Part shown: piece by piece, positions 1 through 26,379 of the stretch
Layout of the letters: each line of letters starts with the position of its first letter
How positions within the stretch are numbered: position 1 is the stretch's first letter
Origin: a virus
DNA: 26,379 bases
IMG/VR virus record: IMGVR_UViG_3300021964_000438
Coordinates: 1-26,379 of that record
Strand: one strand, 5' to 3'
Translations under genes and position numbers: made by a program
The notes under the pieces: model-generated
What the model was told of the DNA's origin: nothing
Databases searched by the model: none
Seen by the model: the letters and a program-made list of their open reading frames with translations, nothing else

Positions 1-1685
1 AGAAAACAGGTCTCCTCGAAGGTATTGAGACCGAGCGTCAGCAGAACTCAATGGCCCGTCTACTTGAGAACCAAGCCAAGGAGCTTCTCCGCGAGAGCAA
101 CACCATGAACTCTGGCGATGTCGAAGGCTTCGCTGCCGTCGCATTCCCCATCGTTCGCCGCGTTTTCGCTGGTCTTATCGCCAACGATCTCGTCAGCGTT
201 CAGCCAATGAGCCTACCCTCTGGTCTCATCTTCTTCCTAGATTTCACTTTCTCTGGTGATCTTGGAACTGGCACTATCGATGGTCGTATGGGTAACTTAA
301 AAGATAAGTCTATCTACGGTACCGATCAGGTCGGTGCGCAGATTACTGGTGGTGTTGAACTCCTTGGTTCACTCCAACAGGATCTCTCTGGTCCACGTAC
401 AGCTACCGCTCGTGGTTATGCTTACGCTAGCCCAGTTAGCAGCGTTGAAATTACTGCTTCATCACTATCAGTAAGCGTTTTCTCCTTAACTGGCGCTACT
501 GCTGATAACAAGAAGGACATCGTATATGATCCTGATTTGCTTGCAGTTAGTTCTTCCGGTGATGCTGGTTACGTTATCAAGGTTTCACTTGCCGATTCAG
601 CAATGTCTCAGCTAGATAAGGAAAACCTTGCTGCTGTTACTGCTTCAATTGGTTCCCTTGACGATGTTGTTGGAGGCGCTACTCTATCTACATCCGACAC
701 AGCGCAGGTTCGTCGCTTGAGCCAGACATCTGGCGTAAACACAGTTCTTTACTTCCGCACCAGTGTTGATCTTGCTGGATTTACTTCTGATGTCGGTGCT
801 GCTAACAAGAACCTTGATCTTGAGTTCCCGATCACAGACGCTTTCCAGTCTGGTGACAACACCGACCTTGGCGCTGTTCGTGGTAACGCAACTTGGGGTC
901 TTGAAGGTTCTGCTAACATCCCCGAGATCGACATCAAGGTTGATTCCATTGCTGTTACCGCTCAGACCAAGAAGCTCAAGGCCAAGTGGACCCCAGAGCT
1001 TGGTCAAGACCTCAACGCATACCACAACTTGGATGCAGAGGTTGAGCTTACCAGCCTTCTCTCCGAGCAGATTGCTCTAGAGATCGACCGTGAGATCCTT
1101 GCTGACCTCGTTAACGGCGCTACTGCAGCTACCCGTTACTGGTCACGCGCACCCGGTCTCTTCGTTGACTCCACTGGTGCTGAGATTGGTGCTGCCACCA
1201 AGGCTCCCGACTTCACTGGTACCGTCAGTGAGTGGTACGAGACCCTCGTTGAGACCATCAACGATGTCTCCGCTCAGATCCACCGTAAGACTCTACGTGG
1301 TGGTGCTAACTTCGTCGTCTGCGGACCCGAGGTTGCCAACATCCTTGAGTTCACCGCTGGCTTCCGTGCAAGCGTCACTCACGACGACGAGAAGGGCTCC
1401 ATCGGCGCTCTCCGCGTTGGTTCACTCAGCAAGAAGTTTGATGTCATCGTTGACCCCTACTTCCTACGCAACGTCATCCTAGTTGGTCGTCGCGGCGGTA
1501 GCTTCCTCGAAAGCGGCTACGTCTACGCCCCATACGTCCCACTACAGACTACCCCAACAATCTTCGGACCAGAAGACTTCGTACCACGTAAGGGTGTTAT
1601 GACCCGTTACGCGAAGAAGATGGTTCGTCCAGATATGTACGGTCTAGTCGTCGTTCGTGGTCTCCTAGGTGAGTCTGGCGCTTGA
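1..1685 (+). CDS. 23: Major capsid protein gp23 (5'-truncated by window)
   Basis: This is the T4-type major capsid protein, which builds the hexameric shell of the prohead. The reading frame is open from base 3, so the first in-frame ATG at 51 is an internal methionine and the true start lies upstream. The segment after it (MARLLENQAKELLRES, then GDVEGFAAVAFPIVRR and SVQPMSLPSG) is the hallmark of gp23 in T4-like phages. In T4 the prohead protease gp21 removes an N-terminal propeptide after an [I/L]-x-E site; the LRE at codons 13-15 counted from base 51 is a good candidate here. About 560 residues are visible, somewhat longer than the 521 of T4. The codon choice is relatively GC-rich, as expected for a highly expressed gene. 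A strong terminator follows 25 bases after the stop. The family call is firm; the cleavage position is inference. Confidence 0.96.
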   Translation, partial: KTGLLEGIETERQQNSMARLLENQAKELLRESNTMNSGDVEGFAAVAFPIVRRVFAGLIANDLVSVQPMSLPSGLIFFLDFTFSGDLGTGTIDGRMGNLKDKSIYGTDQVGAQITGGVELLGSLQQDLSGPRTATARGYAYASPVSSVEITASSLSVSVFSLTGATADNKKDIVYDPDLLAVSSSGDAGYVIKVSLADSAMSQLDKENLAAVTASIGSLDDVVGGATLSTSDTAQVRRLSQTSGVNTVLYFRTSVDLAGFTSDVGAANKNLDLEFPITDAFQSGDNTDLGAVRGNATWGLEGSANIPEIDIKVDSIAVTAQTKKLKAKWTPELGQDLNAYHNLDAEVELTSLLSEQIALEIDREILADLVNGATAATRYWSRAPGLFVDSTGAEIGAATKAPDFTGTVSEWYETLVETINDVSAQIHRKTLRGGANFVVCGPEVANILEFTAGFRASVTHDDEKGSIGALRVGSLSKKFDVIVDPYFLRNVILVGRRGGSFLESGYVYAPYVPLQTTPTIFGPEDFVPRKGVMTRYAKKMVRPDMYGLVVVRGLLGESGA

Positions 1686-3060: not shown

Positions 3061-3552
3061 ATGTCAGATAACGAATGGTCTAGACCAGCATCGCCACCTC
3101 CTCCACTCTTTCTCGGTAAGAAGGAGCGCGATCTTGTTAAGCAAGTCAACGATGAACTTGTAGAAAAGGTAATTGGACAACAGATACTTTATTACCCTAT
3201 TGATCTCGAAACAACAAATTTTCATGAGCTATACGGAGAGGCTATAGAAAAAACTTTCTTGCCACCTGTAAGAGTATATGCTCTCGTTAAGTTTGACCAA
3301 GACGACACATCTTATCTAGATTCAGTTGGAATCGATAACATGTCCGAGATTACGATTCACTTTCACAAGCGTAGACTTACCGAAGACCAAGATCTATTTG
3401 TAAGAGAGGGCGACTTTGTTCTCTACGGAGACCTCTACTATGAGATTATGGCCTTATCTTCACAGAGAAGACTATTCGGTCAAGTAAACCAAACATTTGA
3501 AATCTCTGCTAAATGCAAGAGAGCACGCAAGGGACTATTCGATGCTACCTGA
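3061..3552 (+). CDS. Neck protein, gp14-like
   Basis: This 163-aa protein has the order of motifs seen in T4 gp14 neck proteins: a GQ-x3-YYP element near residues 39-46, an F-x-ELYGEA segment, a beta-rich middle, then VREGDFVLYGDLYYEI and a FGQVNQTFEI-type end. In gp14 the corresponding text is GQ-x2-YY-P, D-x-IYGED, then EGDLIYF-x8-FEI and FYQ-x8-Y-x-L. The protein would join the gp13-like product at the head-tail junction. It is shorter than T4 gp14 (256 aa) and begins with a proline-rich stretch. It sits 4 bases after the gp13-like gene and its last 11 bases overlap the next gene, so the three are surely co-translated. No strong SD precedes the ATG, which suggests translational coupling. 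Confidence 0.6.
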   Translation: MSDNEWSRPASPPPPLFLGKKERDLVKQVNDELVEKVIGQQILYYPIDLETTNFHELYGEAIEKTFLPPVRVYALVKFDQDDTSYLDSVGIDNMSEITIHFHKRRLTEDQDLFVREGDFVLYGDLYYEIMALSSQRRLFGQVNQTFEISAKCKRARKGLFDAT

Positions 3553-24434: not shown

Positions 24435-24442
24435 ACTATTTA
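24435..24442 (+). promoter_or_regulatory. Candidate late promoter box ACTATTTA before Lys/Cys-rich gene
   Basis: The octamer begins 2 bases after the nuclease stop and ends 17 nt before ATG 24460. The surrounding 13 bases CACTATTTACTAC equal those at 1748-1760 before the gp13-like gene. It suggests that the next two genes are late or virion genes even though they follow replication genes. Confidence 0.5.
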
Positions 24443-24459
24443 CTACCGAGGTATAGTAA

Positions 24460-25224
24460 ATGGAAAATCAATTTTCAAAGTTTATAGATAAGAAAGACTT
24501 CTTCTTTCAGCTAGGTCAAAAGGACGGACAAGACGGAAAGTATAGATCTCGTGAAGAGATCTCCATGCTTCCTGATGTCGGTCAGATCTCGGAAGAACAT
24601 TTTCAGGAATATCTTTCAGGTCGTGACGTTGGAGAAGAAGATTCCCGCTACTACGGTGACTTGTACGAACTTGACGAAGAAAACCTTCTAAACTTTGTAA
24701 ATGAAGAAGAGATTGAACTTGATGAGAAAAAGAAGAAGAAATCAAAGGGCAAGAAAGACGCTTGCTACCACAAGGTTCGCGCTCGCTATGACGTGTGGCC
24801 TTCTGCTTATGCCTCTGGGGCTCTCGTTAAGTGTCGCAAAGTCGGTGCTGCAAACTGGGGCAACAAGTCCAAGAAGAAGGAAGGCTTAGAACTTGACAAT
24901 CATCTCCTACAGATAATCAAAGAAGAGTACGAGGCTGTGCTTGCCGAAAAAAAAAAGAAAAAGGCGGGCACTGAATCAAGCAAAGAATCAAACTTAAGAG
25001 ATTGGTTCAAGCGCAAGGGCGGTAAGGGCTCTTCATCTGGTTGGGTAGACTGTAACACTTGTCGCAAGGACAAGAAGACTGGCAGAAAGAAGTGTTCTTC
25101 CTGCGGTCGTAAGAGTGGCGAAAAGCGTTCTAAATACCCATCTTGCCGTCCGACACCTAGTGCTTGCGAAGAACGCGGACGCGGTAAATCTTGGGGTAAG
25201 AAGTCAGCAAAAGGTAAGAAATAA
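24460..25224 (+). CDS. Lys/Cys-rich protein of unknown function, two domain blocks
   Basis: A 254-aa protein. The N-terminal 88 residues are acidic (EEENL..., NEEEIELDE), then a Lys run leads to a block at 100-133 (DACYHKVRARYDVWPSAYAS to ANWG). This block is widespread in marine phage and some giant-virus proteins, but I know no function for it. A second Lys run at 164-168 precedes a block at 178-247: LRDWFKRKGGKG, GWVDCNTCR, KKCSSCGRKSGEKR and YPSCRPTPSAC. It has CxxC pairs at C198/C201 and C212/C215 plus C229 and C236, suggesting a zinc ribbon; it resembles DUF5872-like proteins, from memory. The basic C-terminus suggests nucleic-acid binding. CGAGG lies 8 nt before the ATG; the stop overlaps the next start (TAATG). 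Ten consecutive A at 24947-24956 could cause slippage. Confidence 0.75.
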   Translation: MENQFSKFIDKKDFFFQLGQKDGQDGKYRSREEISMLPDVGQISEEHFQEYLSGRDVGEEDSRYYGDLYELDEENLLNFVNEEEIELDEKKKKKSKGKKDACYHKVRARYDVWPSAYASGALVKCRKVGAANWGNKSKKKEGLELDNHLLQIIKEEYEAVLAEKKKKKAGTESSKESNLRDWFKRKGGKGSSSGWVDCNTCRKDKKTGRKKCSSCGRKSGEKRSKYPSCRPTPSACEERGRGKSWGKKSAKGKK

Positions 25225-26379
25225 TGAACATCCAGCACGTAATAGAACAAGAGCTAAGACTCTTTCTTGAAGGCAAGGCAGAAGACCTTGTTGCAAAATT
25301 CCCAGAACTTCAACCAGCCTACGACGCGGGAATCAAGAACCCACAATACCTCCAGTGGATTCAGAAGCGCAGAGGTGATGAGCCAGTCGAGGACATTATT
25401 GGCGTCGTACAATCTTTTGATGCTGCAAAACAGCGTCTGAAGGCAAAGAAGATGTCTCCGGACATCTATGCCTACAAAACTCCCTCTGTTCTTCGTCAGG
25501 CTTTAGAAGATCTTGGTGGCTCAAAGGGCCAAGAGCGCCGCCGCTTGAAAGACGAAGAAACAACTTATATTGGTGAGTTTGGTGACTGGGTTGTGGCTAT
25601 GCCTCACACACGCGAAAGTTCGTGTCAGCTTGGTAAGGGCACTACTTGGTGTACCGCTGCAACACAATCACAAAACCTTTTCTTGTCCTATGTTGCTAGA
25701 AAGAGAAACAACATTGTCCTCTACTATGTTATCAAAAAAGGTGCAGATCCAAGACAAGATCCAACTTCAAAACTTTCAGTTGGCTTCGCTGGAGGAGAGC
25801 CCGTTTTCAGAGGAGACTACGGAGGAGTAACTGTAGACGCAGCCAATAATGGAATAGACTATGAAAGATACAAGGAGATCTTGGGAGATCAAGCATTACC
25901 TGCGCTTAGGGCTATGGAGGCACACGCAGACTCTATTGAAGGCAGACACCCAGCCAAGAAGCAAATAGAGAAGATTGCTAAAGATCTTGATGCTTTTGAT
26001 AAAGCGATAGCAAATATGGAAGAAGGCGAGAAACTTGACTTTATTGCAAATGTTGCCGAATACGAACTAAGCCCAGAAATTGCAAGCAAGATTGCTAGCG
26101 ACGAGAATCACAAAATCAGAAGCCTTGTTGCAAAGAAATCCTCTACTCCACCAGAGGTATTGCAGAAACTTGCTAGCGATGAAGAAACTTACATTAGAGT
26201 GTGGGTTGCTGCTAACTCTTCCACGCCGATGAAGACCATACTAAAGCTCGCTGAGGACGAGAAGGCTCGCGTCAGATCCGGGGTCGCTGGAAATGAAAAT
26301 ATACCACCTGAGTTGCTAGTAAAACTAGCCAATGATAAAGATTCTTATGTTAGGCAAAGTGTTGCCGACAGAGATTCTA
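25224..26379 (+). CDS. WCTA-motif protein with C-terminal LRV repeats (3'-truncated by window)
   Basis: An open frame of 385 codons that reaches the end of the window. The N-terminal part (1-120) is helical and charged (LRLFLEGKAEDLVAKFPEL, then QYLQWIQKR). A central block has EFGDWVVAMPH, SCQLGKGTTWCTAATQSQN (W142, C143, T144) and NIVLYYVIKKG, a pattern I associate with uncharacterised phage proteins having 'S-C-x-G-x-T-x-WC' and 'LYY-I'. From residue 290 it consists of 26-residue repeats of the leucine-rich-variant type: L-A-x-D-x5-R-x2-V-A-x-N-x2-[TI]-P-x3-L-x-K. LRV repeats form solenoids that bind protein or nucleic acid. It starts on the last base of the previous stop, so the two are probably translated together. 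No catalytic function can be given. Confidence 0.8.
   Translation, partial: MNIQHVIEQELRLFLEGKAEDLVAKFPELQPAYDAGIKNPQYLQWIQKRRGDEPVEDIIGVVQSFDAAKQRLKAKKMSPDIYAYKTPSVLRQALEDLGGSKGQERRRLKDEETTYIGEFGDWVVAMPHTRESSCQLGKGTTWCTAATQSQNLFLSYVARKRNNIVLYYVIKKGADPRQDPTSKLSVGFAGGEPVFRGDYGGVTVDAANNGIDYERYKEILGDQALPALRAMEAHADSIEGRHPAKKQIEKIAKDLDAFDKAIANMEEGEKLDFIANVAEYELSPEIASKIASDENHKIRSLVAKKSSTPPEVLQKLASDEETYIRVWVAANSSTPMKTILKLAEDEKARVRSGVAGNENIPPELLVKLANDKDSYVRQSVADRDS
26091..26379 (+). repeat. LRV-type tandem repeats, 26 codons each
   Basis: Three full units (26091-26168, 26169-26246, 26247-26324) and the start of a fourth (26325-26379) are seen at the protein level, each beginning [IL]A-x-D and carrying R, VA and P at fixed places. 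The DNA itself has diverged, so this is an old protein repeat rather than a recent DNA duplication. Confidence 0.8.

What the first reader, a model, noticed from the sequence alone, without database searches (positions are those of the whole stretch)
25224..26379. Phage protein joining a WCTA-motif domain to LRV repeats
LRV solenoids are rare in phages. The repeats are regular (26 residues) and continue beyond the window. The gene is translationally coupled to the Lys/Cys-rich gene at 24460 under a late-type box, so the pair may form a late, perhaps virion-packaged, two-protein unit acting on the host.
Basis: partly seen in the sequence, partly recalled or inferred. Interest (0 to 1): 0.65.

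Follow-up and report, generated by a model that had tools for sequence, protein, structure and literature searches.

The report
Probable head-packaged phage effector with LRV repeats
A large marine-type phage carries a late gene whose protein starts with a cleavable "pack me into the head" tag, followed by a widespread but unstudied phage domain and a repeat scaffold of the kind that grips other proteins; it is probably carried in the virus particle and delivered into the host cell.

Summary
The ORF at 25224 runs off the contig end and carries about four 26-residue LRV repeats (Pfam LRV 44.6 bits, cut-off 21.6). Close relatives encode the complete 618-1123 aa protein. Across relatives the leader is swapped (14-38% identity in three of five) while the sequence just after Glu16 is kept (66-93%). 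Similar leaders precede each internal module in fused relatives. Some 351 IMG/VR loci encode the WCTA domain, which PHROGs lists with no function. Of 22 WCTA-bearing records searched, 12 carry a T4-type (S77) prohead protease and none an S78 protease. The PA5oct homologue is annotated as a virion protein by mass spectrometry. The C-terminal module is interchangeable: LRV, LRR, pentapeptide, DUF4116, LRV plus Fic. A late box (ACTATTTA) heads the two-gene unit. Best explanation: a T4-like internal head protein, cut by the prohead protease, packaged, and probably ejected as a host-acting effector. "Obligate pair" is not supported, because close relatives keep the Lys/Cys gene without the WCTA gene. 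What the WCTA domain does remains unknown.

The parts
24435..24442 (+). late-type box ACTATTTA, with Shine-Dalgarno GAGG at 24448-24451
   Evidence: 5 CTATTTA on + and 0 on - in the window; strong upstream enrichment in relative G003
24460..25224 (+). Lys/Cys-rich gene, 254 aa (44 Lys, 16 Arg, 8 Cys); PHROG 727/38880/3477, unknown function
24757..24882 (+). conserved DACYHKVRARYDVWPSAYASGALVKCRKVGAANWG domain (aa 100-141), common in cyanomyoviruses
   Evidence: 369 phage records
24904..24948 (+). internal leader-like motif LLQIIKEEYEAVLAE followed by KKKKK (aa 149-163)
25224..26379 (+). WCTA-LRV gene, 385 aa, cut by the contig end; complete relatives 618-1123 aa
25224..25271 (+). leader, aa 1-16 MNIQHVIEQELRLFLE; predicted cleavage after Glu16
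   Evidence: S77 protease in relatives
25272..25550 (+). helical domain, aa 17-109
   Evidence: AlphaFold model
25551..25934 (+). WCTA alpha/beta domain, aa 110-237; motif GKGTTWCTA at 25632-25658
   Evidence: phrog_17056 and phrog_28193 each match 46 of 49 members
26049..26379 (+). LRV solenoid, 26-residue repeats, cut by the contig end

Best explanation
The gene encodes a late, T4-type internal head protein. Its first ~16 residues act as a capsid-targeting leader that brings the protein into the prohead core; the phage's S77 prohead protease then cuts after Glu16; the mature helical-WCTA-LRV protein is packaged with the DNA and ejected into the next host, where the LRV solenoid binds a host (or defence) protein and the WCTA domain acts on it or holds it. 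Supported here by sequence: leader modularity, position-specific motif, protease co-occurrence, late box, cassette gain and loss, swappable solenoids. Inferred: actual cleavage, packaging in this phage, ejection, target and activity.
For: Leader swap exactly at Glu16: leader identity 0.38/0.26/0.14 against body 0.93/0.82/0.66 for L121/L125/L126. Glu16 is present in at least 90% of 48 diverse members. Hydrophobic-hydrophobic-x-E in the first 30 aa in 43 of 51 members against 22% of internal windows; a stricter leader pattern occurs at the N-terminus of 5 of 128 G003 ORFs and in 0 of 1153 internal windows. In L121 (1123 aa, two WCTA-LRV units plus a K/C tail) a leader motif precedes all three modules. 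T4 gp21 cuts after L/I-x-E and the 10-residue CTS is sufficient for packaging (PMC9026906). S77 protease in G001 and G003 and in 12 of 22 WCTA records, including both complete phages SCTP-2 and PA5oct; S78 in 0 of 22. PA5oct homologue gp279 annotated 'structural protein, ESI-MS/MS'. Late box. Variable C-terminal modules including Fic.
Against: No virion proteomics for this phage; PA5oct gp279 shares only about 31% identity over ~140 residues and no peptide data were seen, so cleavage is unproven. The leader's P3 is Phe or Tyr rather than L/I in some members (LFLE). The S77 co-occurrence has no background rate from random large contigs. Ten of 22 records, mostly fragments, show no S77 match. 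The motif patterns were chosen after seeing the sequences. Ejection and host action rest on analogy with T4 Alt and the IPs.
Confidence: 0.66

Rival explanations
1. Packaged internal protein with a head-assembly or DNA-condensation role (like T4 IPIII), not a host-acting effector; the solenoid binds core or scaffold proteins.
For: Fused or adjacent modules are Lys/Cys-rich and basic; T4 IPs are basic and IPIII helps head assembly.
Against: The WCTA gene is dispensable between relatives (L012, L013, L014, L016), its C-terminal module is swapped between solenoid types and carries an intact Fic motif in L130, which fits an arms race better than a conserved assembly role.
Confidence: 0.2
2. Non-packaged intracellular effector or anti-defence protein made late; the N-terminal helix is a dimerisation or partner-binding helix.
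For: No direct evidence of virion location in this phage; the model continues the helix over residues 3-25.
Against: Late box, leader swapping at a fixed Glu, S77 co-occurrence, PA5oct mass-spectrometry annotation.
Confidence: 0.1
3. Tail, neck or baseplate structural protein with HEAT-like repeats.
For: Solenoid fold is HEAT/LRV-like; the PA5oct homologue is called structural.
Against: Gene lies between the 5'-3' exonuclease and the replicative helicase, is absent in close relatives, and carries a head-type leader.
Confidence: 0.04

Closest known systems
T4 internal head proteins (IPI, IPII, IPIII, Alt)
   Same: short N-terminal leader ending in hydrophobic-x-Glu, S77/gp21-type protease present, late expression, small basic companions, fast turnover between relatives
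   Different: no sequence similarity noted in the mature part; WCTA plus swappable solenoids; leaders also occur inside multi-module proteins; cleavage not shown
PHROG 17056 / PHROG 28193 (unknown function)
   Same: 46 of 49 members match each: this is the WCTA family
   Different: PHROGs gives no function for it
Pseudomonas phage PA5oct gp279 (YP_010678935) and Wroclawvirus homologues; Salicola phage SCTP-2 paralogues
   Same: N-terminal Glu-containing leader, helical region before the domain, GKGTRWCTAA domain; gp279 annotated from virions by MS
   Different: no LRV match seen; about 31% identity over ~140 residues; SCTP-2 has 7 copies
Leucine-rich repeat variant (PF01816; 1LRV)
   Same: 26-residue repeats, significant Pfam score, model Z 12.6 to 1LRV
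   Different: fused to the WCTA domain and leader
SPN3US / phiKZ ejection proteins
   Same: prohead-protease-processed proteins packaged with DNA
   Different: mostly long propeptides, A-X-E motif (PMC5694885); no sequence relation tested

Membership tests
T4-type internal head protein | N-terminal leader of about 10-20 aa ending at hydrophobic-x-Glu | tested here: met
T4-type internal head protein | phage encodes an S77 (gp21-like) prohead protease | tested here: met
   in relatives G001 and G003; 12 of 22 WCTA records; the window itself is a fragment
T4-type internal head protein | late expression | tested here: met
   late box only; no transcript data
T4-type internal head protein | leader removed by the protease | not testable with these tools
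   needs N-terminomics
T4-type internal head protein | present inside the virion head | tested here: inconclusive
   PA5oct homologue annotated ESI-MS/MS; nothing for this phage
LRV repeat family PF01816 | 26-residue repeats scoring over the curated cut-off | tested here: met
   44.6 vs 21.6 bits; 125.8 bits in complete relatives
PHROG 17056/28193 | profile match | tested here: met
PcfJ (PF14284) | profile or fold relation | tested here: inconclusive
   hhalign Prob 0.1, no better than shuffles; PF14284 hits two WCTA proteins at 2.8e-4 and 6.4e-4; BFVD PcfJ-like models prob 0.93, E 2e-3
GNAT acyltransferase | GNAT fold with acyl-CoA pyrophosphate loop | tested here: inconclusive
   GNAT entries dominate the list but best Z 5.0, rmsd 4.5, 104 aligned; the alignments reach mainly the N-terminal part of the GNAT chains; CoA loop not examined in coordinates

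The most novel reading that the evidence does not exclude
The WCTA family is a broad class of virion-delivered phage effectors built like secretion-system effectors: a shared capsid-targeting leader and WCTA domain joined to interchangeable target-recognition solenoids (LRV, LRR, pentapeptide, DUF4116) and sometimes an enzyme (Fic), some made as multi-module precursors cut by the prohead protease.
Probability: 0.4. Interest if true: 0.82.

Novelty: new variant of a known kind. Interest (0 to 1): 0.62.

Why it matters
T4 injects a few internal proteins that modify the host or protect against it. If a readable leader marks head cargo in the many uncultured S77-protease phages, their injected proteins can be listed from sequence alone, and this family would be a large unstudied part of that list. 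The leader/body split gives a simple test (N-terminus of the virion protein at residue 17).

Tried and rejected
T4 late consensus TATAAATA: absent from the window. PcfJ homology by profile-profile: no support. PDB profile search with the family alignment: no hit. Foldseek PDB with the WCTA model: nothing below E 1.9. GNAT relation: only weak Z, not claimed. NCBIfam and PADLOC hits of family members come largely from the repeat or Fic parts and say nothing of WCTA. Cellular origin: only 1 confirmed locus in 84,980 genomes (a WOR-3 MAG), with a strict pattern. tblastn of the whole window protein against cultured phages: no hit at 1e-5; a laxer search with the first 250 residues found the PA5oct group and SCTP-2. 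Literature searches for LRV in phages or for capsid-targeted cargo of marine phages gave nothing on this family. Virion evidence for the Lys/Cys family in cyanophages: not found in the two papers read.

Full report
Observation. The window is an entire IMG/VR record of 26,379 bp from a large tailed phage with a T4-like major head protein, UvsX and a DNA polymerase. The ORF at 25224 is open at the contig end. It starts within the stop of the gene at 24460 (TAATG). It contains GKGTTWCTA and regular 26-residue LRV repeats, which Pfam scores at 44.6 bits against a cut-off of 21.6. AlphaFold gives a confident model (mean pLDDT 88.7): N-terminal helices, a small alpha/beta domain, then a helical solenoid. 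The solenoid matches designed alphaRep/HEAT proteins (Z 13.6) and 1LRV (Z 12.6) about equally.

Complete versions. IMG/VR holds relatives at the same place, between the 5'-3' exonuclease and the replicative helicase. L002-L006 encode 802 aa, with nine repeats and a Lys/Cys-rich tail; L007 644; L008 634; L011 618; L015/L121 1123 aa. L121 contains two WCTA-LRV units and a Lys/Cys tail in one protein. L012, L016 and L014 have only a small Lys/Cys protein in that slot. L013 looks like a clean deletion: the end of the Lys/Cys gene joins the 3' end of the WCTA gene at a short shared GCAGGRAA. The gene is therefore a cassette that comes and goes, and the pair is not obligate. In L193 the Lys/Cys domain and the WCTA domain are one protein, so a functional link remains likely.

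The leader. Residues 1-16 (MNIQHVIEQELRLFLE) are followed by GKAEDLV. In L121, L125 and L126 the leader is replaced by quite different sequences (identity 0.38, 0.26, 0.14) while the body after the Glu keeps 0.93, 0.82 and 0.66; in L124 and L008 the leader is still similar (0.75, 0.81). Across 48 diverse members Met1 and Glu16 are at least 90% conserved. A hydrophobic-hydrophobic-x-Glu motif lies in the first 30 residues of 43 of 51 members against 22% of internal windows. In relative G003 a stricter pattern is at the N-terminus of 5 ORFs and in none of 1153 internal windows, although two matches that straddle windows lie inside proteins, one of them in the Lys/Cys gene; a looser one gives 10 hits in 40,491 residues, five within 10 residues of an N-terminus and two at junctions just before KKKK. 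These patterns were chosen after seeing the sequences. In the fused protein L121 each of the three modules is preceded by such a motif, and in L007 and L008 the tail module even keeps its own late box, Shine-Dalgarno and ATG inside the larger ORF. This fits T4 capsid-targeting sequences: about 10 residues suffice for packaging, and gp21 cuts after L/I-x-E (PMC9026906; PMC3012670). The match is not perfect, as some P3 residues are Phe or Tyr.

Protease and virion evidence. S77 prohead protease is present in G001 and G003, and in 12 of 22 WCTA-bearing records, including the two complete cultured genomes; the HK97-type S78 protease is in none. I have no background rate for random large contigs. 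The Pseudomonas jumbo phage PA5oct homologue gp279, next to the terminase gene, is annotated as a structural protein found by ESI-MS/MS; homology is about 31% over 140 residues.

Late expression. ACTATTTA is strongly strand- and position-biased in G003 (22 on +, 1 on -; 13 of 22 at 15-75 nt upstream of a gene, 1.3 expected) and lies 24-25 nt upstream of 24460.

The family. 351 IMG/VR loci were confirmed with two short patterns, of which 80 were kept; one cellular genome matched under a stricter pattern. It corresponds to PHROG 17056/28193 (46 of 49 members each), with no function; no Pfam family covers the domain across members. C-terminal modules among 49 members: LRV 5, DUF4116 2, LRR 2, pentapeptide 1, Fic 1. 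L130 is WCTA-LRV-Fic with an intact HPFDDGNGRSGR. BFVD fold matches include phage and giant-virus proteins, one called an ankyrin repeat protein. The scan for LRV itself returned 14 loci, 12 of them WCTA genes and two contig-edge fragments.

Function. What the WCTA domain does is not known. Fold matches to GNAT (Z at most 5) and PcfJ-like models are too weak to rely on. The mechanism I favour is packaging, protease release, ejection with the DNA, and solenoid-mediated binding of a host or defence protein. Leader modularity and co-occurrence are shown by sequence; cleavage, packaging here, ejection and target are inferred. One further leader-bearing late gene of G003, at 122461, is an S-adenosylmethionine lyase by Pfam, which fits anti-host cargo but is also unproven.

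Noticed in passing
L111:2461-3090 (G003 122461): ORF starting MDKFINEWKEFLTESS, with a late box 22 nt upstream, matches S-adenosylmethionine lyase PF23780 (49 bits, cut-off 28): possible head-packaged anti-restriction enzyme.
   Followed up: partly
G003 (L105-L111) at 3549, 10614, 1621, 80930, 66531, 70664, 72032, 72893, 82432, 83103: Other ORFs with capsid-targeting-like leaders in two flavours (MKLLMENWYRFLAE.. and MKITKxxLKQIIKEEL..); most of those scanned have no Pfam match.
   Followed up: partly
L007, L008 (EGNTM region), L002: Late box, Shine-Dalgarno and ATG nested inside the WCTA ORF before the Lys/Cys tail: the tail may also be made alone. In L002 the box is mutated.
   Followed up: partly
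L130:3677-6643: WCTA-LRV-Fic protein with intact Fic motif HPFDDGNGRSGR.
   Followed up: partly
Salicola phage SCTP-2 (MF360958.1) 30-42 kb and 346.8 kb: Seven WCTA paralogues, six of them clustered in 30-42 kb.
   Followed up: no
L002:5219-5998: The Lys/Cys gene carries an inserted DUF5661 domain (PF18905, 49.9 bits) that was not matched in the window copy.
   Followed up: no
window 51-1685: Major head protein has LLRE|SNT near its N-terminus, compatible with the same prohead-protease motif.
   Followed up: no
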